Below, in pieces: positions 9 to 45,348 of a stretch of DNA of 64,000 bases. The notes under the pieces were generated by a model. The model was not told the DNA's origin. It saw nothing but the letters and a program-made list of their open reading frames with translations, and ran no database searches. Every line of letters begins with the position of its first letter. Position 1 is the first letter of the stretch. The stretch is from Ashinkailepas kermadecensis (taxonomy: Eukaryota; Arthropoda; Thecostraca; Neolepadidae), in assembly GCA_034440615.1 (NCBI GenBank), contig JAOTOM010004947.1:557012-621011 (forward strand), given 5' to 3'. The translations under genes were made by a program, and so were the position numbers.

Positions 9-1253
9 TTATTGCTGAAAATGTGTTAGTAATTTCACACAGTCCTGTACCCCAATCCCGAAAAGACAAATATCATCCAGATTGTTCTCGATTAGACGAA
101 TCACAGCATCTATTCCCTCCTTTATCGGAATGCTGCCATATAAATTTGTCACGTCCATGGTGAAAACAATACTGCCTTCCGGAAGTTTGGTAGGAAACGT
201 TTCTTTCACCCTCTGTAGGTACGACTCTGAGTTTGTCAGATGGGCGGGAACCAACGCTAGTATCTGGACAAGAATCTTGCTCAAGAACCAAGATAACTTG
301 TCTAGGGGGTCACCACTCGCCGACACTACAGGGCGCAGTGAAACCTCTAGTTTGTGGTTTTTGGGCACGCCGTATAATTCCGCTGTGAGGCTGGAATGAG
401 GAAGGAGAGATAACACTGTGTCTTTATGTAACTTCCCTGATAAAGTTTCCTTGATGATAGTACATGTTTCGACTTCGAGACGTTTGGTAGTGTTTGGTTG
501 GGAAGGAATGCTCTGATAATCGTCCGTTATTTTCCTGGCCTTTTGAATGTAATCCGTTTTGTTTAGCACGACGAATCCTTTGCATTTATCTGACTGCTTT
601 ACTATTACATTATCATTGTTTTTCATTTCCCGAAGTACTTCCCTCTGTTTCGCATAATTGTCCAACATTTTGTTCCATGATTTGTTGTGATATTCATATG
701 CTTTTAGAACTTTTGTTTTTAAATCTTTCAACTCAGATTCTAATTGAGTTGTGGCTCTCGGTGGTTGGTATGCAGGAGTGTCGGGAAACATGGGGCGAAG
801 CTTTGAATAACCTGTGCTAGAGGTGCTTTGTGATAAGCCTGCCTGCGGTACCTGAGGTACAGTTTGCTGTTTTGTCTCCTTCACATTCCTCCACCGCAAA
901 CCATAGATCGCCCTTTCTACGCCTGATTCTGCCTTTTCCAAGCAGCTACGATCTACTTTTTGAGCTAACGCAAAATTGGGGCCTTTGTCAAGCAATCCCA
1001 ATATATCTGAGTCTAGAGGTAACTTACTTAGATTAGACGTGCGATTTGTACGATATTGTTCAGTGCCATCGCCGTTGGTGTCCGTACCGTGGGTGCCAGA
1101 AGTAATGCAACTACCCGAGCTCTCTCCACTAGTAGCCGCGTGGTGAAGTAAATTATTTGTATCCGGGAGTGGCGTAGGTGGTTGGTACGATGAATGTGTG
1201 CCTAGGCGAAGTTCGTCCTCTTGTGGGGCGCTGCGGTCGGCTGCTGGCCTCAC
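9..1253 (-). pseudogene. Penelope-like element reverse transcriptase, N-terminal part (broken, runs to window edge)
   Basis: The 414-residue minus-strand frame carries the upstream part of a Penelope-like RT. From about residue 215 it has the PLE block DKCKGFVVLNKTDY. Near residue 290 comes YGVPKNHK, then LRPVVSASGDPLDKLSWFL. Near residue 365 comes FTMDVTNLYGSIPIKEGID, with the first catalytic Asp. The N-terminal ~190 residues are low-complexity and poorly conserved, as in PLEs generally. The frame stops at TAA (9-11) before the second RT half. A one-base shift just before the stop reads SNNLI, which resembles the usual continuation, so a frameshift is likely rather than a true end. The YxDD region and GIY-YIG domain would lie left of the window. 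It is a different PLE lineage from those at 12.5-15.5 and 31.8-34 kb. Confidence 0.85.
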
Positions 1254-2064
1254 GCCGCAGTTTCTGACTCAAGAAACAACGCTGGAGATCGTCAAACACA
1301 GAAACCACCCACGCATAGCCAAAGCCCACCCAAAGTTCCAAACAGTCACAACGCTGGGCACGAACGCACTAAACAACGAAGCGCACCAGACCCTGTCCGC
1401 ACAGCAGCGAAAATCGACAACACCACGTGGTGAAGCACCAACATCACTACAAACAGCTGTTTTCACTGGGCCGCAGTGTTTGTCCGCCTCTGACTCCTCA
1501 GGCAAGAGATGACCTGTTGGCCCGTTGGCCTGAGCGCAGCGCCGCGAGCAGACGCGTCTCGGTCGCTCATCCATCTTGAACGGTTGTAGGTGGTGGATGC
1601 GTTTTTTGGTGCTCGCTGTTCGCGATCGTTTTTTACCTTTTCTGTTACTTAGTGGGCCAGGTGTATATATACAAATTGAAGTTAATTTAGTTATAATCAT
1701 ATTGATGCGACTCCACGATGTATAAGGAGAAGTACGCAGAAGAACGCCGAAGGTAAAGCAAATCATTTTTGATATAATTCATCGAAATCTGACTTGACAC
1801 CTGGCATTTTGTGTACTTTTTCAAGCCAACATTTCTCTCCTCGAGCGGAAAAACGTGATATCTCTCACAAGAAGCGTCCATTCTATGTGTTTGAAAACAA
1901 TATGACCACCTATTTTGGGGGCGTTCAGGTTGCGAGCGCTTGACAGCGACCCCCGGCCGCCCCTTGCCGTTTCGTAGATTTATCCCAGAACTACGAAACA
2001 TCGCATTAATTTCATCATCAGCGCAAGCAACCAATAAATCAGCAAAAAATAGATAACTATCACC
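1254..2064. other. Region upstream of the PLE reading frame
   Basis: This stretch lies 5' of the minus-strand PLE frame and probably includes its untranslated or pseudo-LTR part, but I could not find an edge. A 165-codon minus frame (1269-1766) and a 115-codon one (1687-2034) resemble nothing I recognise. I looked for a hammerhead core here and found only CTGATGATGAAA near 2010-2025, which lacks a stem II. Confidence 0.3.
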
Positions 2065-7969: not shown

Positions 7970-8267
7970 TTTGGATGGATGGGGTGATATTTACGTTAAA
8001 TGTGCACGGCACGGACCCCTTTAAGCAGGGGCTATGGTAGCACAATGGGTGTAATGGGAGGAGCTTGCGGTTGTTGAGTGTGTTATGCAATAGCAAGTGG
8101 ATGATGCTAGATAGGCTGGGATATATAGCTTCCTAGGAACTTGGGATAAGGGATTGATTGGGGTGAGAATATGTACATTTCTAGTACCTTTTTTAGATAG
8201 GCTTAACCCAGATGGGCCCCTGTGGCTCTTATTAAGCCTTAACACTTTATGACTTTATGACTTTATG
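7970..8267 (+). repeat. CR1 3' UTR and ACTTTATG tail
   Basis: The 3' UTR ends in three perfect ACTTTATG units (8244-8267). A diverged reverse-complement copy of this UTR and tail starts the minus-strand CR1 at 11132, showing that both belong to one family and defining the 3' end. Confidence 0.85.
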
Positions 8268-9550
8268 ACTGAGACCTGGCTGCGCCCAAGCACCCCCACG
8301 CGTCTCATTAACTTCCCCGGTTACCAAGTGAAACGCGCGGACCGGCCCGACTCGAGTGGTTACGGTGGGGTGGCGATTATCCCCAAGTCAGCTCTAACTA
8401 TTACCGTTTTGAAAATTTATACGTCTCCGAACTCTAGCTCCAAACTAGAATCACTCTGGGCCAAAGTCAAAGGGAAGAGCGGAAAGTATTTCATTCTAGC
8501 GGCAATCTATCGGCCACCTCGTAGCACTCTTCCTGCTTTAAATGATGACTTCGCTGAGCTCGAAAGACAGGTTCAATTGGCGACACTGAACTTTACCGGC
8601 ACTTTCTACCTCGCAGGTGATCTAAACTGTAACCTTCTCGACACGGCTAATAGCCCCAGCAAAACACACCTGCTTGAGTTCATCAGCAACTATTCACTTA
8701 CCGTGACAGTGCAGCGCCATACATTCGCCACAGGCTCTTTATTGGATGTCATCCTAACAAACTCGCCGATCTCAGTCGGCAGAACCAGAGTGAGTTTCTG
8801 CCACTACAGTCCTCATAAATTTATCATATGTTCCATTAAAGTAAACAGGCCTGTCTCAGTTAACACCGTAATAAAGTCACGTTCTTACGGACGAGTAGAT
8901 ACCTCGGAACTGACTCTTGACCTTGGTGAGATCGACTGGGTCCAGGTCACTGGGCGCATCTCAGTAACGGACAAATGGGACACCCTGCTGAAATTGCTGA
9001 CACCTATTCTCGACGAGCACCTGCCCCTCAGAAACATCAAAATCAGGAACCCAACAGCACAATACGTCAGCGAAGCTACCAAACAGCTCATGCACCGGCG
9101 AAATGTAGCTCTGCACTTGCAAGATAGAAGCACATACAAAATACTTAACAGACAAGTTCGCTCAGCTATTAGAGCTGACTGTAGGGACGATATTAGCAGA
9201 AAGATATCACAGAAAGGCCCATCAGCTGCGTGGCGTGCTATTAAGCCCATTATCGACACCAAGAAAGGCTCTCATAGAGTTCAACCCCAGGTCCTACCTG
9301 AGAATCTAAATCAATACTTTGTTAGTGTCGGACCTAAGGTATCAGCAGAGGTCAAACGTCAGGCAAACATGTCTGAACACACACCTCCCAGTTGCCGGCT
9401 ATCGCGCGTCTCTACCAGCTCCTATAAAGTATCACCCATATCCCTCGAACAGCTAACCAAAATTGTCATGGATATGAGGAGCACAAGTGCTTGCGGACCC
9501 GACGGGATCTGTATTAAGGTCATCAAATTCTGTTCTTTTTTATCGGAGAA
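8268..9550 (+). pseudogene. LINE A ORF2, endonuclease portion
   Basis: Motifs in order are TETWL, GYGGVAI, ESLWAKV, AIYRPPRS, FYLAGDLNCN and LDVILTNSPI. The SDH catalytic triplet expected near residue 187 reads SPH (HYSPHKFI), so the Asp is replaced by Pro. This should cripple cleavage if it is not an assembly error. After a linker with VSEATKQLMHRRNVAL, the frame reaches the RT entry (STSACGPDGICIKV) and then shifts out of frame in the TTCTTTTTTA run near 9533-9541. The first ~41 codons of this domain are at 3232-3357 on the far side of the CR1 insertion. Confidence 0.88.
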
Positions 9551-10978
9551 GTGCTGCTCGACATTATAAACACATGCCTGACTACAGTTGATATACCCTC
9601 CACTTGGAAACAGTCAATAGTAACTCCCATTCACAAATCAGGAGATCCTTCGGATCACTCTAATTTTAGGCCCATCTCATTGGTTCCGGTTATCGCCAAA
9701 ATCACAGAGAGGGTAGTGCAGAAGCAACTCTATCACTACCTGAACGCAAACCACCTACTGGCCCAAACTCAGCACGGCTTCAGACCACGCCACTCTACGG
9801 AAACCGCTCTGATTTCAGTCTCCGACAAAATACTAGCAGCAATGGACCGTTCGGAAGTAGCTCTTCTTTGCATTCTGGACCTCAGTAAATGCTTCGACGT
9901 AATAGATCACACCAAACTGCTCACTAAACTAGAACTCCATGGAATCGATACTGACTGGTTTAAGGCTTATCTGGGAGGTCACACGCAGGCTGTTAGCATC
10001 TCAGATCAACGCGGAAACAGGCATCTCTCCTCCTTTCTTCCTAACAACATAGGTGTTTTTCAAGGCTCATCACTAGGTCCACTCCTCTATTGCATCTTTT
10101 CGAACGACCTCAGTTTGCACGTCCCAGTAGCACACGTCACTCAGCTCGCAGACGACACCCAGGTCCTCATCTCCGGTCGCAAATCTGATCTCCCAAATCT
10201 GATAAATCAGATGGAGACATGTCTGAACCAACTATACGACTACTTCCTGGATAACGGTTTGAAGGTAAACCCGACCAAAACTCAGCTTCTCACGTTCGGA
10301 TCGCGTCAGAATCTTCGCAATATTACCCCGATACGAGTGTGCTTTAGGGACGCCGTGATAGATGAAAGTCATTCGTGTAGGAACCTTGGGGTGACATTTG
10401 ATCGCCACATGTCGTGGGATTCCCATGTAGCTGTTGTGGTCCGCAAGTGCACAGGATTCTTTCTGGCTCTGAGCCATCTGCGTCACCATCTGCCAACCAG
10501 TACCCTCTTCACTATAGTCAATAGCCTAGTTAGATCCAATATCCGCTACTGCATATCTGTTTATGGGAACGGGTCGGCAGCAAACATCCACAGACTAGAC
10601 AAGATCATTAACTTCGCCACTAGAGTCGTGTCAGGTCTACGGAAATTTGATCATATTTCTGATGCCCGTAACGAGTTGGGTCTTCTCACCGCAGCTGATC
10701 TGCATCTATTTCACAGCCTTACTTTGCTCCACAAGATCATTCTGACGGGTGAGCCAATGCACATTGCCGGTCAAATCTCTGCAAACTCTACCCTGCGAAA
10801 CAGTCATACGCGTGCATACGACCACCTGCACCTGCCAGCCATACACAGAGAGGCGGGCTGCAGGAGATTTATCTACTGGTCTGTCTTCCACTACAACAAA
10901 CTCCCTACTGAAACAAAAACATTGAAGCTGTCTAACTTCAAGAAGCGTGTGCGAGCTTATCTCCACGAGCAACACTAG
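9540..10978 (+). pseudogene. LINE A ORF2, reverse transcriptase portion
   Basis: The 475-residue frame holds a nearly complete RT: FRPISLVPVIAKITERVV, QHGFRPRHSTETAL, CILDLSKCFDVIDHTKLL (catalytic Asp), GVFQGSSLGPLLYCIF (usual GVPQGS changed to GVFQGS) and QLADDTQVL (active-site ADD). The thumb and C-terminal segments NLGVTFDRHMSWDSHV and IRYCISVYGNG follow. It ends with FIYWSVFHYNKLP and FKKRVRAYL, as in L2-group LINEs. Only one indel separates it from the endonuclease frame. Confidence 0.92.
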
Positions 10979-11131
10979 TCACACAAAAAAAAACTTACAA
11001 AATAGATTTGTGTACACCATGCACTCATATTTAGGCCATCGCTTTCATATCACTTCCATAAACTACTCGTTTACAGCTCGTGTTGCAAGCAACGGTGTGT
11101 GTAGTGCAGAGAGTGATATGGGTATTGTATT

Positions 11132-12370
11132 ATAAAGTCATAAAGTCATAAAGTATTAAGGCTTAATAAGAGCCACAGGGGCCCATCTGGGTTAAGCCTA
11201 TCTAGAAAAGGTACTAGAATGTACATACTCCCATCCCAATCAATCCCTTATCCCAAGTTCCTAGGAAGCTATATATCCCAGCCCATCTAACACCACTCAC
11301 TTGCTACCGCCTAACACCCTCAATAATCACAAGCTCCTCCCATTACACCCATCGTGCCACCATAGACAACCTCATCAGCATCACATCCCGAAGGAAGGTG
11401 CCGAATCCACTGCTAGGCACATCCCACAGAAATTCATAAAGCGTTCAGACTTAAGAGACTCACTTGCTATTGCATAATACACTCAACAATTACAAACTCC
11501 TCCCATCATACCCATTGTGCTACCATAGACAATCTCATCAGTATCACATCCCGAAGGAAGGTGCTGAATCCACTGCTAGGTACACCCTATATAAAGTTAT
11601 AAAGCATTTAGACTTAATAAGAGACTCACTGGCTATTTCATAACACAGTCAACAATTACAAACTCCTCCCAACTCACACTCCTCCCTGTCGATCAACCTT
11701 CCCTGGAATACAGAAAAACAATCCCCCTATTCTTATAATGATTGTCTATGCCGTTTTTAAAGATGTTCAGTGTGTTGCTACTGACAATGGTTCCTGGCAG
11801 CTGGTTCCAGTGTTCTACTACCCTGTTGGTGAAGAAAGACTGTCTTAACCTTGTCCTGCTGTGATTAACTTTAATTTTGAATTGATGACCTCTAATTGCA
11901 TCATTTCTGTTAAATTCAAACATTTCCCTGAGATATCCCTGTTCCTGACCATGAACAAATTTAAAAACCTCGATGAGATCTCCTCTCAGCCTTCTATATC
12001 TAAGTGAAAACATGTTCAATTTCTTCAGTCTTTCCTCATATTCCAGGTTGCCTATACCATTAACCATTTTTGTTGCCCTCTTTTGTACTCTCTCTAAAAG
12101 CCAACAATCTTTCTCATAACTAGGGGACCAAGCTTGGACACAGTATTCCAAATGTGGCCTGACATATGCACAGTAAAGCTTCCTGATGACCTCCTCACTT
12201 TTGTATGACACATTCCTCTGTATTGCCCCAAGCATTCTTAGTGCCTTCTTCCTGGCTTCTTTGGTCTGTTCTGATGCCCCCAATTTTGTGTTCAAAATAA
12301 CACCTAAGTCCTTCTCCTGCTGAGTCACAGATAGTACTTGGCCACCCATCGAGTATGGAGCCTTCATATG
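11132..12370 (-). mobile_element. 5'-truncated CR1-type LINE, minus strand
   Basis: It begins (3' end of the element) with a CATAAAGT-unit tail at 11132-11154, the complement of the ACTTTATG tail of the nested CR1. A 3' UTR of about 540 bp follows, then a frame 11693-12367 for the ORF2 C-terminus. That frame reads VTQQEKDLGVIL, KKALRMLGAIQRNVSYKS, YVRPHLEYCVQAWSPSYEK, RRLRGDLIEVFKFVHG and EHWNQLPGTIV. It is intact over 224 codons but lacks everything upstream, consistent with 5' truncation during target-primed reverse transcription. It is a sister subfamily of the 3.4-8.3 kb CR1, not a recent copy of it. Confidence 0.9.
11320..11690 (-). repeat. Tandem ~163-bp units in the CR1 3' UTR
   Basis: The block containing CATCCCGAAGGAAGGTGC and CCACTGCTAGG occurs near 11384 and again near 11547. 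Each is preceded by ACAA(G/A)CTCCTCCCAT and a CACCATAGACAA-like stretch. A partial third unit begins near 11650. The other CR1 copy has a single partial unit, so unit number varies between copies. Confidence 0.7.
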
Positions 12371-12374
12371 CTAC

Positions 12375-12540
12375 CTGCCTTCATATTATGTTGGTGTATG
12401 AATGTTTGTTGCGCATGTGTTCCCACTATTGACCACAAATCTATCCCTTCTTTGTAAATATCTGTGAGTTATACCCAGACTGTCCATAATAGCCACTATA
12501 CGTGGAGGGCATGTATTGTAAAATAAATAAATAAAATGAC
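12375..12540 (+). mobile_element. 3' end of another non-LTR element with (AAAT)n tail
   Basis: The stretch reads toward GGCATGTATTGTAAAATAAA, with an AAAT-unit tail ending near 12537. This is the usual look of an arthropod-type LINE or SINE 3' terminus. It carries no coding sequence and cannot be classified further. It lies between the truncated CR1 and the PLE. Confidence 0.45.
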
Positions 12541-12544
12541 TGGT

Positions 12545-13240
12545 TTCTAGGGGTAGTGAAATGGAGTCCCTAGAGCTCTGATTGGGCCGAGCCGTCGAAC
12601 TGGAGACTTCTTCTTCCGTTGCTGCAACACTTGAAGAAACAGAAGACTCGATCTTCTGGGCATTTTCAGGCAAGTGACTTGGACACGGTACCTGCAGGAG
12701 GGTACTTCCCGGAAGACAGGTGCTTGACAGAGTCCCGTGCCCTGGTGCAAGCCCACGGCCTGAGCCGCTGCTGTCTCCTAGACTCTGCTTCTGAAGCGAT
12801 TCAAATTTCTTGACTAACCTTTGTCTGCAAGCGCTTCTTTCATGACGAAGGAGAGAGTGGCACTGCTCTAACAACCAGCACCAATCTGGACAGCTGCAGG
12901 ACAAACGCCGCCCCTAACGGCGCAGACTTCTTCTTATATAGGCCCGATGTCTGTAAGCATCAGAAATCTCTTCTCGTAACATGATAGCTTGACGTTTGCT
13001 AACTTGTTTACGGACCCGCTGGCTACTGGAGCTGTGATGAATTGAAACCTTGGAGACTATGGAACTGGGGTAGAGCCTTTCCTGTCTGCAGTTGATGAGG
13101 AAGATGATCCGTTCTTCGACACGTCCTTGCTTTTGATACAAAATTGCAAAGTGGGCCATTTCTTCCGTGAGGTCGCCACTGTTATAACATTGTTTAATAT
13201 AACGAAGAATGGCTCTTAGATGCTCCTGGGTTTTAGACAT
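12545..13240 (-). pseudogene. Penelope-like element ORF, N-terminal part with an in-frame stop
   Basis: The minus-strand frame starts MSKTQEHLRAILRYIKQCY at 13238-13240 and continues with RVEERIIFLINCRQERLYP, typical of the helical N-terminal region of PLE proteins. A TAG at 12914-12916 interrupts it, but the same frame continues (GRRLSCSCPDWCWLL) to about 12545, so this is a single nonsense change. The match to PLE rests on linkage: the same start codons follow the PLE 3' UTR at 15463 and 33909. It is the downstream ORF start in a tandem pseudo-LTR arrangement and is cut before the RT. Confidence 0.7.
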
Positions 13241-14178
13241 TGCGTGTAAAGAAAATATACGGCCTTCAATATACCAGGAGGTGCTGAGTTGACATCAAAA
13301 GTAACGTTAAAGATTATACTTTATTACTCAACGTTTCGGCCAGGGGCCATCGTCAGGAGTGATAAAAAAATGTCAAGCTTAACAATTCAAAAAAGCACGC
13401 GGGAAAAAAGCGTGCAAAAAGACACGTGGAATGCAAGAAAAGCCTCCTCAGTGGTGCAGACACTCAAGGAAACTCCAAACCAGAAACATACTATGTCAAG
13501 ATGGAATACTCTGAGGAAGCCCGAGCCGATGTTCCATATACATATCGATGCATACACTCACGCACATATATAGACATATATCCAATATAACGCGTAATAC
13601 ATAAAATATAATTTATGTTTATGTAATTTTATGTCATATACCAAGACGTCGTTTGCGTGTTTAGTTGCGGCCGTAGATTACGTATATGTAGAGATTCGAG
13701 GACCTTCAGATCAGCGTTGTCCCTGGCTGTTGCTAGAATTTCTACTTTGAAGTTTGTGTTAGTGTCGCTGTGTTCCATGTTAGAATGTTTGTCAATCATG
13801 TGTTCGCCTAAAGGTGTGTATGCTCTCCGAAGTCTGGCATCTCCCAAGTGCTCATTTTACCTATCCCTAATAATACGTTTGGTTTCACCGACATGAAATG
13901 TTCCAAGACAGCGATTGCATGTTATTTTATAAACTACGTTTTTCCGCGTGCATCTGCCTTTGAGCCCGTTGATACAGGTGCGGCACGTTCTTCTACCAGC
14001 AGGGCATGGCGGAATTTCCAGGGCTGAGCGGACCAGGTAAGATTTCAGCGTAGGTCCGCTAGTCCAAGCTACCCTAACATGGTTTAGATGAGACGAACGG
14101 ATGCCTGCGTTTACCTGTCGACATAGTTGGTCATCGACAAAAGGAAGTCTCATGTAAACATAGTTTGGATTGCTACCC
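13241..14178 (-). mobile_element. PLE locus 1, left inverted arm: C-terminal ORF, 3' UTR and pseudo-LTR
   Basis: On the minus strand the frame 14189-13629 encodes the PLE C-terminus: NPNYVYMRLPFVDDQLC, then a CPAGRRTCRTC zinc-ribbon-like linker, then a GIY-YIG-type endonuclease (VVYKITCNRCLGTFHVGET, IRDR), ending at TSWYMT. The 3' UTR and a hammerhead-like motif follow before the next ORF start. Differences from the right arm include GIRSS for AIRSS and IIRDR for SIRDR. The arms meet tail-inward near 14175. Confidence 0.88.
13319..13367 (-). ncRNA. Hammerhead ribozyme-like motif, PLE locus 1 left arm
   Basis: Read on the minus strand it has CTGACGA, stem II GGCC/GGCC around a CCT loop, GAAAC and GTT before the cleavage position. 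The outer strands pair over about 11 positions (helix I). Hammerheads are known in PLE pseudo-LTRs. Helix III here would have only two pairs and no loop, so activity may need a dimeric form. Confidence 0.6.
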
Positions 14179-15075
14179 TCAGAACACACTGGTCATAGCA
14201 GTTCGATTCCTTTCCTTGATAAGTTGTTTGTAGTTCAGGCTGATGGGAGCTACACCACCGAACTGTACTTTAAACCAATGGCAGCCCCCATCATATTGCA
14301 CTATGATTCGGCCCACCCGATGGCCACTAAAAAGGCCTTTTTAACATCCCAAATGAGGAGAGCAGCACGAGTCTCCTCCGATACTATTTCATGCGAGCGG
14401 AGCCTTGCGAAGATGACAACTCTTTTCCTGGAAAACGGATACCCAGCACATCGGGTACACTCCGCCGCTCGTGCTGTTCACCCTCACAACAGGACTAGGA
14501 TAGGTGGGCAACGTCGGCATCGAGCGGGTTGCAATCCCAACTATGTTTACATGAGACTTCCTTTTGTCGATGACCAACTATGTCGACAGGTAAACGCAGC
14601 CATCCGTTCGTCTCATCTAAACCATGTTAGGGTAGCTTGGACTAGCGGACCTACGCTGAAATCTTACCTGGTCCGCTCAGCCCTGGAAATGCCGCCATGC
14701 CCTGCTGGTAGAAGAACGTGCCACACCTGTATCAACGGGCTCAAAGGTAGATGCACGCGGAAAAACGTAGTTTATAAAATAACGTGCAATCGCTGTCTTG
14801 GAACATTTCATGTCGGTGAAACCAAACGTAGTATCAGGGATAGGTACAATGAGCACTTGGGAGATGCCAGACTTCGGAGAGCATACACACCTTTAGGCGA
14901 ACACATGATCGACAAACATTCTAACATGGAACACAGCGACACTAACACAAACTTCAAAGTAGAAATTATAGCAACAGCCAGGGAGAACGCTGATCTGAAC
15001 GTCCTCGAATCTCTACATATACGTAATCTACGGCCGCAACTAAACACGCAAACGACGTCTTGGTATATCACATAA
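14179..15075 (+). pseudogene. PLE C-terminal ORF with GIY-YIG endonuclease
   Basis: The 300-codon frame starts in the RT connection: IPFLDKLFVVQADGSYTTEL, then YFKPMAAP and HYDSAHPMATKKAF. These match the PLE 'FLD...tELYrKPt...yDShHP..K' region. Next come a Cys-rich linker (CPAGRRTCHTC) and the GIY-YIG domain: VVYKITC, FHVGETKRSIRDRYNEH (catalytic Arg and downstream H/E) and TPLGEHMIDKH, ending in LRPQLNTQTTSWYIT. PLE GIY-YIG domains nick target DNA to prime reverse transcription. The upstream RT core is missing. Confidence 0.93.
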
Positions 15076-15335
15076 AATTACATAAACATACATTATATTT
15101 TATGTATTACGCGTTATATTGGATATATGTCTATATATGTGCGTGAGTGTATGCATCGATATGTATATGGACCATCGGCTCGGGCTTCCTCAGAGTATTC
15201 CATCTTGACATAGTTTGTTTCTGGTTTGGAGTTTCTTTGAGTGTCTGCACCACTGAGGAGGCTTTTCTGCATTCCACGTGTCTTTTTGCAAGCTTTTTTC
15301 CCGCGTGCTTTTTTCAATTGTTAAGCTCGACATTT

Positions 15336-15384
15336 TTTTATCACTCCTGACGATGGCCCCTGGCCGAAACGTTGAGTAATAAAG
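15336..15384 (+). ncRNA. Hammerhead ribozyme-like motif, PLE locus 1 right arm
   Basis: CTGACGA is at 15347-15353, GGCC-CCT-GGCC forms stem II, and GAAAC is at 15366-15370 with GTT directly after. Strands 15336-15346 and 15374-15384 pair at 10 of 11 positions (one C/A mismatch), giving helix I. The predicted cut is after 15373. Helix III is reduced to A-U and C-G with no loop. Confidence 0.65.
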
Positions 15385-15515
15385 TACAATCTTTAACGTT
15401 ACTTTTGATGTCAACTCAGCACCTCCTGGTATATTGAAGGTCGTATATTTTCTTTACATGCAATGTCTAAAACCCAGGAGCATCTAAGAGCCATTCTTCG
15501 TTATATTAAACAGAT

Positions 15516-17382: not shown

Positions 17383-17641
17383 TGGTTGCGTTTCTATGGA
17401 TGGTCTATGAAAGGCTGATCTATGGAAGGCTGGTCTATGAAATAGCTGGTCTATGAAAGGCTGTTCTATGAAAAGGCTGGTTTATGAAAGGCTGGTCCAT
17501 GAAAGGTTGATCTATGCAAGGCTGCTCTATAAAAGGCTGGTCTATGAAAGGTTGGTCTAAGAAAGGCTGATCTATGAAAGGCTGGTCTATGAAAGGCTTG
17601 TCTATGAAAGGCTTGTCTATGAAAGGCTGGTCTATGAAGGG
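17383..17641. repeat. ~15-bp minisatellite, about 17 copies
   Basis: Degenerate units of GGTCTATGAAAGGCT, with variants such as GATCTATGAAAGGCT and TGTCTATGAAAGGCT, lie between the 31-bp and 26-bp arrays. Confidence 0.85.
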
Positions 17642-17724
17642 CTAGCTATACTTGATGTACAATGCCAATCTAGGAAAAGGTGTCTTGCAGTATATCGCTG
17701 ATACACACTGCAAACGCGTGACAG

Positions 17725-19936
17725 AGCTGTCGAGGCTGGTGGCTCCCGCCAACTGTCGAGGCTGCTGACTTCCGCCAACAGTCGAGGCTGGTGACTCCCG
17801 CCAACAGTCGAGGCTGGTGACTCCCGCCAACAGTCGAGGTTGGTGGCTCCCACCAACTGTCGAGGTTGGTGGCTCCCGCCAACTGTCGAGGCTGGTGACT
17901 CCCACCAACTGTCGAGGCTGGTGGCTCCCGCCAACAGTCGAGGCTGGTAACTCCCGCCAACAGTCGAGGCTGGTGACTCCCGCCAACTGTCGAGGTTGGT
18001 GGCTCCCGCCAACAGTCGAGGCTGGTGGCTCCCACCAACTGTCGAGGCTGGTGACTCCCGCCAACAGTCGAGGCTGGTGGCTCCCGCCAACAGTCGAGGC
18101 TGCTGACTCCCGCCAACAGTCGAGGTTGGTGGCTCCCGCCAACAGTCGAGGCTGGTGGCTCCCACCAACTGTCGAGGCTGGTGACTCCCGCCAACAGTCG
18201 AGGCTGGTGGCTCCCGCCAACAGTCGAGGCTGCTGACTCCCGCCAACAGTCGAGGCTGGTGGCTCCCGCCAACAGTCGAGGCTGCTGACTCCCGTCAACT
18301 GTCGAGGCTGGTAACTCCCGCCAACAGTCGAGGCTGGTAACTCCCGTCAACTGTCGAGGCTGGTGGCTTCCGCCAACAGTCGAGGCTGCTGACTCCCGCC
18401 AACAGTCGAGGCTGGTGACTCCCGCCAACAGTCGAGGCTGGTGACTCCCACCAACTGTCGAGGCTGGTGACTCCCACCAACTGTCGAGGCTGGTGGCTCC
18501 CGCCAACAGTCGAGGCTGCTGACTCCCGCCAACAGTCGAGGCTGGTGGCTCCCGCCAACAGTCGAGGCTGGTGACTCCCACCAACTGTCGAGGCTGGTGA
18601 CTCCCGCCAACAGTCGAGGCTGGTGACTCCCACCAACTGTCGAGGCTGGTGACTCCCGCCAACAGTCGAGGCTGGTGACTCCCGCCAACAGTCGAGGCTG
18701 GTGACTCCCACCAACTGTCGAGGCTGCTGACTTCCGCCAACAGTCGAGGCTGGTGACTCCCACCAACTGTCGAGACTGGTGACTCCCGCCAACAGTCGAG
18801 GCTGCTGACTCCCGCCAACAGTCGAGGCTGGTGGCTCCCACCAACTGTCGAGGCTGGTGACTCCCGCCAACAGTCGAGGCTGGTGACTCCCACCAACTGT
18901 CGAGGCTGGTGACTCCCGCCAACTGTCGAGGCTGGTGGCTCCCGCCAACTGTCGAGGCTGCTGACTCCCGCCAACAGTCGAGGCTGGTGGCTCCCACCAA
19001 CTGTCGAGGCTGGTGGCTCCCGCCAACTGTCGAGGTTGGTGGCTCCCACCAACTGTCGAGGCTGGTGACTCCCGCCAACTGTCGAGGCTGGTGGCTCCCG
19101 CCAACTGTCGAGGCTGGTAACTCCCGTCAACTGTCGAGGCTGGTAACTCCCGTCAACTGTCGAGGCTGGTAACTCCCGTCAACTGTCGAGGCTGGTAACT
19201 CCCGCCAACAGTCGAGGCTGGTGACTCCCGCCAACTGTCGAGGCTGGTAACTCCCGTCAACTGTCGAGGCTGGTAACTCCCGTCAACTGTCGAGGCTGGT
19301 AACTCCCGTCAACTGTCGAGGCTGGTAACTCCCGTCAACTGTCGAGGCTGGTGGCTCCCGCCAACTGTCGAGGCTGCTGACTCCCGCCAACAGTCGAGGC
19401 TGGTGGCTCCCACCAACTGTCGAGGCTGGTGGCTCCCGCCAACTGTCGAGGTTGGTGGCTCCCACCAACTGTCGAGGCTGGTGACTCCCGCCAACTGTCG
19501 AGGCTGGTGGCTCCCGCCAACTGTCGAGGCTGGTAACTCCCGTCAACTGTCGAGGCTGGTAACTCCCGTCAACTGTCGAGGCTGGTAACTCCCGTCAACT
19601 GTCGAGGCTGGTAACTCCCGCCAACAGTCGAGGCTGGTGACTCCCGCCAACTGTCGAGGCTGGTAACTCCCGTCAACTGTCGAGGCTGGTAACTCCCGTC
19701 AACTGTCGAGGCTGGTAACTCCCGTCAACTGTCGAGGCTGGTAACTCCCGTCAACTGTCGAGGCTGGTGGCTCCCGCCATCTGTCGAGGCTGGTGACTCC
19801 CGCCAACTGTCGAGGCTGGTAACTCCCGTCAACTGTCGAGGCTGGTGACTCCCGCCAACTGTCGGTGACTCCCGCCAACAGTCGAGGCTGGTGACTCCCG
19901 CCAACTGTCGAGGCTGCTGACTCCCGCCAACGCTGC
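17725..19936. repeat. 26-bp minisatellite, about 84 copies, with higher-order structure
   Basis: The unit is GTCGAGGCTGGTGACTCC followed by CGCCAACA. Most variation falls at a few positions (GGCTG/GGTTG, GTGAC/GTGGC/GTAAC, CGCC/CACC/CGTC, AACA/AACT). Minus frames of up to 486 codons are repeat artefacts: 26 bp is not divisible by three, yet all frames lack stops. The right third contains a 416-bp (16-unit) tandem duplication. Confidence 0.95.
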
Positions 19937-21000
19937 CACGAGCTCGGCCGCGGCTGCGACGCCATATGCGCCCCCGAACCGACAATTCCACGCTCGTCCG
20001 AGGTGTCCGATTTACATTGTTTGTCAGATCCTCCGCAACGTGTCAAGCCAGCTTCCGACCGAGCGCTTCTCACAGACGGCGGACAAACACAGTTATCAGG
20101 TGAAGTCAGTTGTGGTCGGTTGATTCGATTGGCTAGGAGGACAGCCAGTGCATGTGATTCTACAACGGAAGTCACGTTGTTGTATCGGACTACTAATGCA
20201 GCCGCGAGGAAGCTGACACCAGATTGTTCCGTCGCGTAGCTCCTGTAGGATCTGAGAGCATGCTGTTAGTGACGCCTGACACAGATGTCGCCGTCCTTGC
20301 TGCTTACCACAGCCGATACGTGGATGAACAGAGTCGGCTGTACGGCAGACAAGGAGAGGAAACAAAAACAGTGAGTGCTATAATGCTGAGAGAATGTTTC
20401 CAGAAGGGAGGCTTTTTTGGCGTTCTGAAAAGATCATGATGAAGGACCGGATGAAGTATTGCTATTGATCGGCTTAAAGTGTCCATTGTATGTTGTGCAT
20501 CTACTTAATGTGAAAGCTGATCGTTGCCTCCGGCGGCGATTAACTTCCACATTTCTTCTCAATCTGAAGGAAACCTCTATTTACTGCTGTCGAGCGCATG
20601 CCGACGTGACATTGTTCAGTCAAGAAATGTAAACCTTGCCACTTGATTTCCCTGCTGCGTGCCGTGTACTGCACGAAGCATCGACGATGTTTTCGAGATG
20701 CCAAAAAAGAGCTGCTCGTGGCAAACACAAGATGTGAAGAACCTCCGAATTTTGTTTAATAATGCGACTAGCCGGCAGTGACTTCGGTACGTTCTCGCCC
20801 CCCCTCCACAATTACACCTCTTTAGTGGCACTGACAGAGCCCAGTTCTACTTCGTCCAAGCATTGTCTGCCCGAAGCTTGTTTCTGAACCCTAAAGCTTG
20901 GCAAACAGTGGGTCGCGTCTGGCTCCAAGAAGCAACATCACTGCGAATAGACTGAGAAGACGACGAAGTGATCCAAATGACTCAACAATGAAAGATTATT
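19937..21000. other. No recognised gene
   Basis: Mixed-composition sequence. Frames up to 89 codons overlap on both strands without a family signature. I see no repeat array or structured RNA. Confidence 0.4.
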
Positions 21001-25125: not shown

Positions 25126-25289
25126 TTGGTTTTGGTTATTGGTTTTACGACACGTCGACCGTTGAGTCATGTAGCGTCGCCAATCTCTCACGCCGATTGG
25201 TCGCGGGCGAAGAGTAGCGACAGGCGAGACTCGAACCCACAACCTTTCGATTGTGAGACGAGCATCTTACCCCTAGACCACTCGTCCCC
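25126..25289 (-). mobile_element. tRNA-derived SINE, 164 bp, with 10-bp TSD (copy 1)
   Basis: On the minus strand a tRNA-like head has A box TGGTCTAGGGGTAAGATGC (complement of 25263-25281) and B box GGGTTCGAGTC (complement of 25228-25238). A body with CCAATCGGCGTGAGAG and an AACC/AATAACC-rich tail follow. Perfect direct repeats CAGTCGCGGG at 25116-25125 and 25290-25299 bound it. The D-arm looks tRNA-Pro-like but the anticodon loop reads CTCACAA, so I leave the isotype open. Confidence 0.9.
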
Positions 25290-30610: not shown

Positions 30611-31797
30611 CCTGGTTGTACTCTTGGTGTGAATAGCGAGGCGTCTACGCAGTTTGATGAGCCTATTTGAAGTGGATATTGTATGTATGTAGTGTCGTAC
30701 TACTATTGTATGTATGTAGTATGTAGTATCGATAGGCTCTGCTGAGTCCGGCTTTCACTCCTGGATTCCGGAAAAATAAGGCATTTGAGTTGCACTTTTC
30801 ATCAACGCTGGATTGCATGGAATATTTTTGACAGATCAATAGAAATTAGGAATTCACGCCAATCATTCTAATAATATTGAGGATGGGTTCAGTAATTTAT
30901 ATGTAATTATATGATATGATTTCGTTATGATATGATTTCGTTACGATGTGATTTCGTTATGATATGATTTCGTTATGATATGATTTCGGTTAATATCAAG
31001 TAGCAAACAATTATGTGAAGATACATAATTATAGAACAGCCAAATTAGTTGTGAAGGTAAATTATATATTAGCGAAACCTAATTTTGTATTATATTCAAT
31101 TCAGGGTTAACATAATTATTAAGATCAGTTGATTATTACGTTAGATTATGTTACGTTAGATTACGTTATTATTATGTTAGATTATGTTTTTTCTTCAGGA
31201 GCGGCATTATTAGTCTCGCAGTGAAGGGTATTCGTGTAGAACGAGCGGTGGAGTGGAAACTACTTTCTAGGAACATGTGAGATCCAGCGAAAAACCTTTG
31301 GTGCCATTGGACGTGCAATGACATGATGCATATGTGGTCGGAAAAGACGTCCATCATTCGATCCAAAGGCTACACATGTAGTGCGTACGCCAGAAATGCT
31401 GCATGCACTGGTAGTTGACATAATCTATCATAGCCATACGTCTAGCATAGGATCGCGCCTTTGGAATGCACATTACTCTGCGGGCGAAACTGACAATGCT
31501 ATCTAGTGGCATGATGCTAGAGTGGAGTGGAAACTACTTTCTCGGAACATAGTGGCATTATTCCTGGTTAGTTACTGAGTTATTTTAGCTGAGTAGCGGA
31601 TCGACTGCACACGTCATGCAGCACCGACAGAGGTGTGTCATTCAGAGGAGCAAGGTATGTCAGTCGACACGAGCTGCACATCACGCTGTCGAACGCTTTC
31701 TGTTTGCTATGCAAACAGGAATTTCGGATTGTCATTGACAATCCGACAATCACCCATGACAATCGGATCGGATTGTCATATTGTCGTCGGATCGTTA
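30611..31797. other. No recognised gene; short AT-rich repeats
   Basis: A TATGATTTCGTTATGA-type 16-bp repeat runs for about five units at 30910-30987, and ATTACGTTAGATTATGTT repeats occur at 31137-31190. Small GACAATCC/GGATTGTC inverted repeats occur at 31723-31785. No coding signal. Confidence 0.4.
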
Positions 31798-31889
31798 TGT
31801 TATTAACACATTGCGTGTAAAGAAAATATACGACCTTCAATATACCAGGAGGTGCTGAGTTGACATCAAAAGTAACGATAAAGATTATA

Positions 31890-31938
31890 CTTTATTACTC
31901 AACGTTTCGGCCAGGGGCCATCGTCAGAAGTGATGAAA
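31890..31938 (-). ncRNA. Hammerhead ribozyme-like motif, PLE locus 2 left arm
   Basis: It has the same core (CTGACGA, GGCC-CCT-GGCC, GAAAC, GTT) on the minus strand. The base before CTGACGA is T rather than C, which still pairs as a G-U wobble in helix I. Confidence 0.6.
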
Positions 31939-32210
31939 AAAGCTCAAGCTTAAAAAATTGAAAAAAGCACGCGGGAAAAAAGCGTGCAAAAAGACACGTG
32001 GAATGCAGAAAGCCTCCTCAGTGGTGCAGACACTCACAGAAACTCCAAACCAGAAACAAACTATGTCAAGAAGGAATCCTCTGAGGAAGCCCGAGCCGAT
32101 GGTCCATATACATATCGATGCATACACTCACGTACATATCTATATATGTATCTACATATATCCAATATAACGCGTCATACATACTATATATAATTTATGT
32201 TTATGTAATT

Positions 32211-32785
32211 TTATGTGATATACCAAGACGTCGTTTGCGTGTTTAGTTGCGGCCGTAGATTACGTATATGTAGAGATTCGAGGACCTTCAGATCAGCGTT
32301 GTCCCTGGCTGTTGCTAGAATTTCTACTTTGAAGTTTGTGTTAGTGTCGCTGTGTTCCATGTTAGAATGTTTGTCGATCATGTGTTCGCCTAAAGGTGTG
32401 TATGCTTTCCGAAGTCTGGCATCTCCCAAGTGCTCATTGTACCTATCCCTGATGCTACGTTTGGTTTCACCGACATAAAATGTTCCAAGACAGCGATTGC
32501 ACGTTATTTTGTAAACTACGTTTTCCGTGTGCATCTACCTTTGAGCCCGTTGATACAGGTGTGGCACGTTCTCCTACCAGCAGGGCATGGCGGCATTTCC
32601 AGGGCTGAGCGGACCAGGTAAGATTTCAGCGTAGGTCCGCTAGTCCAGGCTACCCTAACATGGTTTAGATGAGACGAACGGATGGCTGCGTTTACCTGTC
32701 GACATAGTTGGTCATCGACAAAAGGAAGTCTCATGTAAACATAGTTGGGATTGCTACCCGCTCGATGCCGCAATCTTCGCAAGGC
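32211..32785 (-). pseudogene. PLE C-terminal ORF with GIY-YIG, locus 2 left arm
   Basis: This arm reads NPNYVYMRLPFVDDQLC, CPAGRRTCHTC, VVYKITCNRCLGTFYVGET and TPLGEHMIDKH, ending TSWYIT. The frame breaks near 32520 (frames 32782-32516 and 32534-32211), where one A of the AAAAAC run seen in other copies is missing. All GIY-YIG motif positions remain in the DNA. Confidence 0.88.
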
Positions 32786-32799
32786 TCCGCTCGTGTCAT

Positions 32800-33492
32800 C
32801 AGCAGCACGAGTCTCCTCCGATACTATTTCATGCGAGCGGAGCCTTGAGAAGATGACGACTCTTTTCCTGGAAAACGGATACCCAGCACATCGGGTACAC
32901 TCCGCCGCTCGTGCTGTTCACCCTCACAACAGGAGTATAGGATAGGTGGGCAACGTCGGCATCGAGCGGGTAGCAATCCCAACTATGTTTACATGAGACT
33001 TCCTTTTGTCGATGACCAACTATGTTGACAGGTAAACGCAGCCATCTGTTCGTCTCATCTAAACCATGTTAGGGTAGCCTGGACTAGCGGACCTACGCTG
33101 AAATCTTACCTGGTCCGCTCAGCCCTGGAAATGCCGCCATGCCCTGCTGATAGGAGAACGTGCCACACCTGTATCAACGGGCTCAAAGGTAGATGCACAC
33201 GGAAAAACGTAGTTTACAAAATAACGTGCAATCTCTGTCTTGGAACATTTTACGTCGGTGAAACCAAACGTAGCATCAGGGATAGGTACAATGAGCACTT
33301 GGGAGATACCGACTTCGGAGAGCATACACACCTTTAGGCGAACACATGATCGACAAACATTCTAACATGGAACACAGCGACACTAACGCAAACTTCAAAG
33401 TAGAAATTCTAGCAACAGCCAGGGACAACCCTGATCTGAAGGTCCTCGAATATCTGCATATACGTAATCTACGGCCGCAACTAAACACGTAA
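32800..33492 (+). pseudogene. PLE C-terminal ORF, locus 2 right arm, decayed
   Basis: The start RAARVSSDTISCERSLEKMTT matches locus 1. A 2-bp insertion (AGGAGTATAGG versus AGGACTAGG) near 32932 breaks the frame. GIY-YIG residues VVYKITC, FYVGETKRSIRDRYNEH remain at 33131-33337. Another indel near 33310 (GGAGATACCGACTTCGG) breaks it again. The other arms lack these lesions, so the arms have diverged separately. Confidence 0.85.
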
Positions 33493-33779
33493 ACGACGTC
33501 TTGGTATATCACATAAAATTACATAAACATAAATTATATATAGTATGTATGACGCGTTATATTGGATATATGTCTATATATGTGCGTGAGTGTATGCATC
33601 GATATGTATATGGATCATCGGCTCGAGCTTCCTCAGAGGATTCCTTCTTGACATAGTTTGTTTCTTGTTTGGAGTTCCTGTGAGTGTCTGCACCACTGAG
33701 GAGGCTTTTCTGCATTCTACGTGTCTTTTTGCACGCTTTATTCCCGCGTGCTTTCTCAATTGTTTAAGCTTGAGCTTTT

Positions 33780-33828
33780 TTTCGTCACTCCTGACGATGG
33801 CCCCTGGCCGAAACGTTGAGTAATACAG
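33780..33828 (+). ncRNA. Hammerhead ribozyme-like motif, PLE locus 2 right arm
   Basis: CTGACGA is at 33791-33797, then GGCC-CCT-GGCC, GAAAC and GTT. Helix I has extra mismatches here (CGTCACTC against GAGTAATACAG), so this copy looks weaker than the one at 15336. Confidence 0.55.
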
Positions 33829-33970
33829 CATAATCTTTATCTTTACTTTTGATGTCAACTCAGCACCTCCTGGTATATTGAAGGTCGTATATTTTCTTTA
33901 CACGCAAGGTCTAAAACCCAGGAGCATCTAAGAGCCATTCTTTGTTGTATTAGACAATGCTATTAACACA

Positions 33971-36231
33971 CATGTGTCGGCGAGTTAGTGAGGAAAGCCA
34001 GCGGAAGGCCAACTATTTACCAGCCGCGGTCAGCGATGTGTGTCTGGCTGCGACACCCTGTGCAATCGGCAAGACTCTCCTAGCGCCATTAGGCTACTGC
34101 GTAAGTATCTATAAATCACTTGCTGAGCATTATCGCTGATCTCAACAAAACTCAGTGCTTTGTTTGTAGCGGTCAGCGCCAACGTGTATATAGGTCCACA
34201 CGCTGGGAGAGACAACGTTCGAATGACAGCGCCCGTCATAAAAGCAGTCCAAAGAACACGGCCTGTCATCTTCTGTCCAGTGATTCTGCAAGACCCGACT
34301 TCTTGTCGTTGCTGAAATGTTCTCTCCAAGCTGGTGGTCCATTGCACATGACGTGTGATTGATTAATTGCAGAGTTAATAAAATCCTATTGGTCGCATTG
34401 GCCATATTGCCCATATACGTATTATTGGCCAGTTTGACATCGTCATCATCAGAGGAAGTGTCTCGTGAATGCTGACTGGTATTGCTTGCAATTGTGCCGC
34501 TTTGCTTGTATTACTGAATACACGGACGCTATGAGCACCAGTCGAGTCAGCTATTTCAAATCGGGACGTCAAGTTCCAACAAATTTCCCGGAACGCTCTT
34601 GAGAAGTTCCCTGTAGAATCCTTCCAATAGGCTCTGGAAGTTTCAAATGAAATACTGCATGGAAGCTTACCGGTAATTTCGCTGGAAACCTACGAGTGAA
34701 GATGTACATGAAGTCATATGTACAATTGTTGCAATTCAACCTAAATATTGAATTGCAACAAAGGAAAACCAGACCTGAGCAGCCAAAGCATCCTTAAATT
34801 CGAACAATGTCTGGCACCTTCCTGGGAAGTATTCTACCTGAATCCCTTCAGGAAAAGTTGTAGCGGAGGTTCCTGGCGCTTCTCTATAACATGTCCGTGT
34901 TGAGCCTCTTACTGCCGGTTCCATTCTTGAAAGGGAGAACTGTCTGTAGGTTGCCTTCATTTTCGGCACAGTTTCTCACTGTCCAATCCTATTTCTAATC
35001 GTCAGTGCCAATGCTATCGGACACCGCTACGACACAAGGCCTACACACAAGGACATGTCCATAGCTTACCAACGGCCTCTCCCAGGAAACTACACCCATG
35101 ATCAGACCATCTAACAATTTGTAGTTTTCACACATCCCCGCACCTAAGTAGCTAACAATTTCAATAAACGAGAGTTAACTACAAAGTGCAATACATTTTG
35201 TACATTCGAGTTAAGCTTACTTGGTCCTAAGCGCTGAATCACGTGAGATAGGCTCTGCAGTTGAGGGTCATTCCAAATCATCGAGTAATTTCTTTGCAAC
35301 TGGAGGTAGAAACTAATCAGAAAAAAGAGCATGTCAACCGCAGTCGGAAGGATAGGAGCGACTATGGGAAGTAGATAATTATAGTAAAGCAGCAGGCAAT
35401 AATCATCATGCATAATACAGATTTGGTGAATAGATGTTATCACAGAAAGCACGTATACATGCATACCAGAATTAGTGGCCAGTGCAGAGGCGTTTTCAGT
35501 GTTTTCGCAGGAGGGGAGAGGAGGACGTTCGTACTTTGTGGCACCAGTGACACCTTCTATGTCGCGGTCTTCTAAAGTGATCGACGCGGCAGAGAAGTAC
35601 ATCTTTCAACTTGTTTGTAATGCATATGTAGTTGCACCCATGACAGGCACCTACATGGGTCCATGTTCATGCAGTGGTGCTCGGACTATTTTAACTTCAC
35701 TTCCTCAGCATCTTTCGCAAAGCTATCATGAATTCAGAGAATATTGAACTCTCCGCTTGATTAAATGGCGTTGGCGCTCATAAGCCTTGAGGGGAACTAC
35801 TTCTTCCAACAAAAGTAATCCCATCTCATAAAAAACATTGCTAGCACTGGTACTGGCTTTTCCAATGTAGCAAGTCGATTCAATCATGCATAACAAATCA
35901 TATGTGTAACCTGCTTCCTGTCAGATGTGGTTTACTGTCGCCAAATTGTCCAATCATACTAAAGTATTCCACGTTCTGGTAGAATCCAGTATGCATTTTG
36001 GCCAGGTCATTCCCGCCAGAGAACACTTGGAAAGCTGCCGAACGCTAAGCCGACGGTCACACACGTGCTGCAGCATTACAGCTTCATTTGTCCAGCTCAC
36101 TGACAATCCGCGGACGCGGAGTGACTGGCGATCTGCGTGAACGAATCACTAGCCTGGGCCACGAGAGGCTCGCTACCTAAGCTGCGAGGTTGACAGAGAG
36201 CTCTCCATTTTGACGTTTGGGAAGTGGGCTA
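33971..36231. other. No firm gene; possible small exons at 35.2-35.6 kb (minus)
   Basis: On the minus strand a good acceptor (CTCTTTTTTCTGATTAG) precedes a segment ending at a good donor CCAA|GTAAGC (about 35214-35312; one frame reads SMIWNDPQLQSLSHVIQRL). Another exon-like piece with acceptor CGATCACTTTAG and donor CTG|GTATGC lies at about 35468-35553 (GATKYERPPLPSCENTENAS). Phases between the two do not join cleanly, so I do not call a gene. A 14-bp perfect hairpin is at 34726-34761. Confidence 0.25.
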
Positions 36232-45184: not shown

Positions 45185-45348
45185 GGTTGGTTGGTTATTA
45201 GTTTTACGACACGTCGACCGTTGAGTCATATAGCGTCGCCAATCTCTCACGCCGATTGGTCGCGGGCGAAGAGTAGCGACAGGTGAGATTCGAACCCACA
45301 ATCTTTCGATTGCGAGACGAGCATCTTACCCCTAGACCACTCGTCCCC
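45185..45348 (-). mobile_element. tRNA-derived SINE, 164 bp, with 14-bp TSD (copy 2)
   Basis: This is the same family and exact length as the copy at 25126-25289, also minus strand, about 95% alike by eye. GCAAACAT(C/T)AGTTA flanks it at 45171-45184 and 45349-45362. The B box is GGGTTCGAATC. The anticodon-loop position reads CTCGCAA here against CTCACAA in copy 1. The tail is AACC repeats (GGTTGGTTGG on the plus strand). Confidence 0.92.

What the first reader, a model, noticed from the sequence alone, without database searches (positions are those of the whole stretch)
31798..33970. Inverted PLE dimer inserted as one unit with a 13-bp TSD
Two PLE 3' portions face opposite ways, joined inside the C-terminal coding region, and a 12/13 identical direct repeat flanks the whole structure. 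That argues for a single integration event of an inverted product, such as template switching, twin priming or a hairpin cDNA, rather than two insertions. Independent lesions in each arm show later separate decay.
Basis: partly seen in the sequence, partly recalled or inferred. Interest (0 to 1): 0.75.

Follow-up and report, generated by a model that had tools for sequence, protein, structure and literature searches.

The report
Head-to-head Penelope retrotransposon insertion
Two truncated copies of a Penelope-type jumping gene lie back to back and most likely entered the chromosome in one event, in a layout these elements are known to make, probably because the enzyme copied its RNA from both cut DNA strands.

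Summary
Window 31811-33956 (A) is two 3' portions of a Penelope-like element (PLE), facing apart (886 of 919 core sites alike), inside a 14-bp direct repeat (13/14) that occurs at no other place in the window. One integration is well supported. But the layout is a known PLE one (head-to-head arms, one TSD, optional 3' 'tail'), and a second head-to-head locus of the family (B, 13191-15512) lies in the same window. B's left arm runs on into the PLE ORF N-terminus, so B is a PLE with an inverted arm at its 5' end; A has arms but no body. B's frame shows that the right arm's extra 50 bp is the start of the ORF: A's right arm begins at ORF nt 50, its left arm at the ATG. That matches in kind the two internal RT start sites of an anole PLE whose enzyme cuts and extends both strands. 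I favour two-strand ('dual') target-primed reverse transcription over hairpin cDNA or classical twin priming. Split sites (14 against 0 and 0) group the arms by locus, and 5 of 6 coding A-B differences are synonymous, so A and B look like separate insertions. An empty site and family-wide counts could not be checked: the own-genome search was unanswered 21 times.

The parts
31797..31810 (.). left copy of the 14-bp direct repeat (TSD)
   Evidence: 13 of 14 with 33957-33970; unique in the window at <=1 mismatch
31811..32770 (-). A left arm (AL): C-terminal coding part, 3' UTR/pLTR; its outer end is at the ORF ATG of the next copy (start site 1, no tail; TGT shared with the target)
32211..32534 (-). 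GIY-YIG endonuclease coding part in AL
   Evidence: Pfam GIY-YIG E 6.5e-4, 20.4 bits, below the cut-off of 22.6
32773..32793 (-). 21-nt block of the left arm, 102 nt further up the template, pairing with 32834-32854
32794..32800 (.). 7-nt filler at the central joint (TGTCATC)
32801..33956 (+). A right arm (AR): C-terminal coding part, 3' UTR/pLTR and tail
   Evidence: matches B 14361-15512
33907..33956 (+). tail of AR = first 50 nt of the PLE ORF (ATG changed to AGG); end at start site 2
33957..33970 (.). right copy of the 14-bp direct repeat (TSD)
13191..14178 (-). B left arm (BL): C-terminal coding part, pLTR and ORF nt 1-50, continuing into the ORF to the left
14179..15512 (+). B right arm (BR), inverted arm ending at start site 2 (ORF nt 50); ORF open 14179-15072
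12758..13240 (-). PLE ORF N-terminus following BL (ATG at 13240, stop near 12914, homology to about 12758)
9..1136 (-). PLE reverse transcriptase part, possibly the same body as B split by about 11.6 kb of nested elements (inferred)
   Evidence: no TSD of the nested block found

Best explanation
A is one integration of a Penelope-like element. (1) The element's GIY-YIG endonuclease cuts both strands of an AT-rich site with a 14-nt stagger (inferred from the TSD). (2) Each free 3' end primes reverse transcription of element RNA that runs from one copy into the next ORF: one cDNA starts at the ATG (left arm), the other at ORF nt 50 (right arm). The end positions are shown by sequence; priming from both strands is inferred. 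(3) Both cDNAs stop inside the C-terminal coding region (shown). (4) The two cDNA ends are joined by end joining or template jumping, leaving a skip, a 21-nt block and a 7-nt filler (sequence shown, process inferred); gap filling makes the repeats. The result is head-to-head arms with 3' ends outwards. B shows the same kind of joint on an element that kept its body. I put a single integration of any kind at about 0.9 and two-strand priming as the route at 0.6.
For: One TSD around the whole. The outer ends are discrete sites at the ORF start: AL at the ATG, AR at nt 50, and B's inverted arm also at nt 50. The 5' ORF identity is shown by homology of 13240-12914 to N-termini of PLE proteins (P0082 E 6.9e-18). 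An anole PLE starts RT at two internal sites, the tail lies between them, both strands are cut and extended, and start sites do not differ between strands (PMC11167929 main text). Arms reach different template positions: 347 nt apart in B, 33 nt apart plus a 102-nt skip in A. Split sites AL=AR|BL=BR 14, other splits 0 and 0.
Against: Two loci only; the genome could not be searched. B has no convincing TSD and its other outer end is not in the window. By raw identity AL is closer to BR (96.95%) than to AR (96.41%), so the grouping of AL with AR rests on the split sites. The right TSD copy resembles the element's continuation. Arkhipova and colleagues prefer self-priming for head-to-head repeats with palindromic joints (PMC3846280 Discussion). 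The arms of A reach nearly the same template position, as a hairpin would predict.
Confidence: 0.6

Rival explanations
1. Hairpin (self-primed) second strand: one cDNA folds back at its end and copies itself, giving an inverted pair from a single priming event (close to the self-priming proposal of PMC3846280, made there for an antisense template).
For: Proposed for PLEs with palindromic joints (PMC3846280). In A the arms reach within 33 nt of the same template position, if the 21-nt block is counted.
Against: AL stops at the ATG where AR carries a 50-nt tail, so AR cannot be a copy of AL; if AL is a copy of AR, changes should be shared or equally spread, but AR has 24 private changes and AL 6 (p 0.0014; 20 against 4 without sites near gaps). 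In B the arms reach positions 347 nt apart.
Confidence: 0.2
2. Classical L1-type twin priming on one RNA: the second strand primes at an internal RNA position.
For: Gives an inverted segment inside one TSD (PMC2837659 passages).
Against: Predicts an inverted piece without a second 3' end; here both arms carry the 3' end and overlap over about 960 bp.
Confidence: 0.08
3. Two separate insertions, or a later inverted duplication, or a misassembly.
For: AL and AR differ at 33 of 919 sites, and unequally; PLEs are known to make partial tandems. The right TSD copy resembles the element's own continuation, which weakens the TSD somewhat.
Against: No host sequence and no second TSD seen at the centre; one repeat outside. 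Both repeat copies share TATTAACACA, which the element lacks. Split sites group AL with AR. The arms carry separate lesions, so this is not a simple read fold-back, and a second head-to-head joint with another breakpoint occurs at B. A later inverted duplication would carry flank with it.
Confidence: 0.08

Closest known systems
Penelope retrotransposons of the rotifer Adineta vaga (Pen2a_Av and others; PMC3846280, passages and Discussion)
   Same: Inverted repeat head to head at the 5' end, one TSD around the insert (9 and 10 bp in two examples), optional short tail on one of the inverted repeats, the repeat including the ORF start; 5' truncation.
   Different: There the inverted repeats described are mostly short pLTRs (about 180-220 bp) with palindromic joints; here the arms are about 1 kb and reach into the endonuclease coding part, A has no body, and the tail is 50 nt.
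Poseidon element of Anolis carolinensis (PAc; PMC11167929, main text)
   Same: RT part and GIY-YIG endonuclease; two internal RT start sites near the ORF start that define the tail; AT-rich targets.
   Different: In PAc the main start is 111-118 bp into the ORF and not homologous to the target; here nt 50 and the ATG, with a possible 7-nt match of the A target to the RNA beyond the tail. That work does not describe head-to-head products in the sections read.
L1 dual priming (PMC2837659, passages)
   Same: Two RNAs primed from the two nicks would give oppositely oriented cDNAs, 3' ends outwards, inside one TSD.
   Different: Only postulated for L1 and not separable there from twin priming; no poly(A) here; a different enzyme family.

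Membership tests
Penelope-like element with endonuclease | GIY-YIG endonuclease at the ORF C-terminus | tested here: met
   AL ORF Pfam GIY-YIG E 6.5e-4, below cut-off; the B ORF itself gives no Pfam match. Of 5 relatives scanned 4 match GIY-YIG, 2 above the cut-off (P0012, P0026); the B ORF aligns with them over the domain, 45-92% identity to nine relatives.
Penelope-like element with endonuclease | Telomerase-like reverse transcriptase in the same ORF | tested here: inconclusive
   Not present in A. Of 5 relatives scanned 4 match RVT_1, none above the cut-off. A PLE RT part lies at 9-1136 and may belong to B. No RT tree was made.
Penelope-like element with endonuclease | pLTR layout: partial tandem or inverted repeat, short TSD | tested here: met
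   A: inverted arms and 14-bp TSD. B: partial copy before the ORF and an inverted arm, no convincing TSD.
Penelope-like element with endonuclease | Optional tail reaching into the ORF start | tested here: met
   AR and BR end at ORF nt 50, AL at the ATG.
Penelope-like element with endonuclease | Hammerhead ribozyme in the pLTR | tested here: inconclusive
   A CTGACGA...GAAAC core is identical in 4 of 4 arms (the likeness is recalled), but no hammerhead match in Rfam at gathering scores in the window or at E up to 5 in 31500-34300.
L1-type twin priming product | Inverted segment from an internal part of the RNA, without duplication of the 3' end | tested here: not met
   Both arms carry the 3' end.
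Dual-priming product | Two RNAs, one per strand, primed at one site | not testable with these tools
   Unequal outer ends and unequal private changes suit it; proof needs a marked-template assay or source copies from the genome.

The most novel reading that the evidence does not exclude
PLE insertion normally proceeds by priming on both cut strands, each strand choosing one of two internal start sites, so that head-to-head arms are the direct genomic footprint of dual priming; body-less pairs such as A arise when both cDNAs stop early, and pairing of the cut strand with RNA past the tail can help to set the start.
Probability: 0.4. Interest if true: 0.65.

Novelty: new member of a known kind. 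Interest (0 to 1): 0.4.

Why it matters
How PLEs make their inverted ends is open: the 2013 account favours self-priming, and the 2024 biochemistry shows both strands extended but leaves the later steps to be validated. A has two outer ends at two discrete start sites inside one TSD, and with B it gives a family in which the alternatives make different, countable predictions. A product of this class was only postulated for L1. As a single locus it is an ordinary PLE insertion.

Tried and rejected
My first reading of B as a second dimer with tails at both outer ends was wrong: beyond 13191 the frame runs on into the PLE N-terminus, so BL is internal; the notes still carry the old reading, one search corrects it. 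A first test for a TSD at B used wrong ends and was repeated with the right ones: best were an exact 4-mer, a 6-mer with 1 mismatch and 9-mers with 2 mismatches, which I do not count as a TSD. The untrimmed arm alignment gave splits 15, 5 and 0; trimming to the shared core, which left out the non-homologous inner ends and the tails, gave 14, 0 and 0, with 18 gap columns and 3 three-state columns set aside; leaving out 4 nt around gaps gave 11, 0 and 0. Rfam: two tRNA matches elsewhere in the window, none in A at gathering scores; two microRNA matches with E 1.7 and 3.9 taken as chance. RNA folds of the pLTR: z -1.75, -1.77 and 0.36, not used. The structure model of the B ORF was of low confidence (mean pLDDT 61) and no fold search was run on it. 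A profile search of solved structures gave 3 matches, best E 0.21, taken as chance. Relatives in viral and prokaryote contigs: none confirmed. Flanks of A and B show no second copy in the window from which an empty site could be read. No exact repeat of 10-15 nt links 1001-1815 with 12301-12929, so the nested block in B's supposed body has no demonstrated TSD. The excess of private changes in AR is unexplained: 2 of its 11 coding changes are synonymous, so they do not mark a functional source; a transcribed dead copy, RT errors or later gene conversion of AL are possible.

Full report
What is there. Window 31811-33956 (A) holds two 3' portions of one Penelope-like element. The left arm (AL) is on the minus strand, the right (AR) on the plus strand, so both outer ends are element 3' ends (head to head). 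They match at 925 of 971 aligned positions with 15 gaps, or 886 of 919 compared core sites. The coding part is the C-terminal GIY-YIG region: the left-arm ORF matches Pfam GIY-YIG with E 6.5e-4, under the curated cut-off, while the B ORF gives no Pfam match. The B ORF finds 81 proteins. Of 5 relatives scanned, 4 match GIY-YIG (2 above the cut-off) and 4 match RVT_1 (none above it); the B ORF aligns with nine relatives at 45-92% identity with conserved cysteines and a Y-G-E motif. The nearest named relatives are barnacle proteins (Amphibalanus amphitrite); the host of the window was not identified.

The direct repeat. ATGTTATTAACACA at 31797-31810 and ATGCTATTAACACA at 33957-33970 agree at 13 of 14. 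With at most one mismatch the 14-mer is found only at these two places on either strand. Random pairs reach that in 9 of 200,000 with fixed ends and 25 of 40,000 with 3 nt of freedom, and in 24 of 20,000 with 5 nt of freedom. One caution: the element's own sequence just past the tail is ATGTTATAACAG. The left copy shares its first 7 letters and the right copy 3; the 7-mer occurs at 25 of 128,001 positions, and 74 of 20,000 random 14-mers score as well with a gap allowed. Both copies share TATTAACACA, which the element lacks, so I read both as target. The likeness may mean that the cut strand paired with the RNA there; B's end shows no such match, so this is one case of the ends examined.

A second locus. 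The same family lies at 13191-15512 (B), again head to head. The finding handed to me does not mention it. Its centre differs from A's: the left arm stops at 14178, the right begins at 14179, and their template reach differs by 347 nt. Beyond 13191 the minus strand stays open from an ATG at 13240 to a stop near 12914, and this product resembles the N-termini of PLE proteins: 5 of the 140 fetched proteins match with E below 0.001, best P0082 with E 6.9e-18, and these five also match the RT part at 9-1268. B is thus a PLE whose ORF starts at 13240, preceded by a partial copy and an inverted arm. The RT part at 9-1136 may be its continuation beyond about 11.6 kb of nested elements; that is inferred, and no TSD of the nested block was found. 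Within the window I saw the family at these two loci only.

The tail is the ORF start. B's frame shows that the right arm's last 50 nt in A is the beginning of the ORF. AL stops at the ATG (three further letters are shared with the target); AR and B's inverted arm both stop at ORF nt 50. In the anole PLE, reverse transcription starts internally, the genomic tail lies between the two start sites seen, both strands are cut and extended, and start sites do not appear to differ between strands (PMC11167929, main text read). In rotifer PLEs the tail is optional on one of the inverted repeats, and head-to-head is called the most frequent arrangement (PMC3846280, passages and Discussion).

History of the arms. 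In the trimmed core (935 columns; 18 with gaps and 3 with three states set aside) 14 sites unite AL with AR against BL with BR, and none supports the other two groupings. Against this, by raw identity AL is closer to BR (96.95%) than to AR (96.41%), because AR carries many private changes; BL and BR are 97.61% alike. Of 6 coding sites among the 14, 5 are synonymous (neutral expectation 0.23, one-sided p 0.003), whereas private coding changes are synonymous in 6 of 25 (p 0.53). So A and B probably came from different functional source lineages, each arm pair from one lineage, and the arms decayed afterwards. Private changes are 24 in AR and 6 in AL (p 0.0014), 13 in BL and 7 in BR (p 0.26); without sites near gaps 20 and 4, 13 and 6. 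The A imbalance is unexplained and does not suit a self-copied hairpin.

The centre of A. The left arm pairs with the right up to 32770/32957, then a 21-nt block (32773-32793) pairs with 32834-32854, then 7 nt (TGTCATC), then the right arm from 32801. This looks like template jumping or end joining with a short filler (inference).

Controls. Of 30 inverted pairs of 60 nt or more in the window, the 25 longest are listed; apart from the PLE pairs they are copies flanking a LINE-like element and simple repeats, so long inverted pairs are not general in this window.

Verdict. In the eight paper searches made I saw no listing or passage that explains PLE head-to-head arms by priming on both strands; most subscription papers are not in the library, and two older PLE papers that I asked for were not held. 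The dual-priming idea itself was put forward for L1 in PMC2837659 (passages).

Noticed in passing
window 8032-11672: A LINE-like element (ORFs 8253-9569 and 9518-10978, plus) is flanked by inverted copies of about 235 bp (8032-8266 and 11132-11365, 91%) that each end in short CTTTATGA repeats facing the element, with a further direct copy of about 210 bp to the right; perhaps 3' ends of another LINE, tail to tail.
   Followed up: partly
window 9-1268 minus and 12758-13240 minus: Two parts of a PLE ORF 11.6 kb apart in the same strand and order, as if one PLE had been split by nested elements.
   Followed up: partly
window 13333-13356, 15347-15370, 31904-31927, 33791-33814: An identical hammerhead-like core (CTGACGA...GAAAC) in all four arms, without an Rfam match.
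   Followed up: partly
window 25222-25282 and 45281-45341, minus: Two tRNA-like sequences very like each other, perhaps SINE heads (the SINE idea is untested).
   Followed up: no
window 17632-20265: Long arrays of an imperfect tandem repeat open in several frames on both strands.
   Followed up: no
P0001 (protein search hit): A 94% identical PLE protein from a 2,077-base JGI record, so a close relative's DNA is in a public collection; its DNA was not fetched.
   Followed up: no
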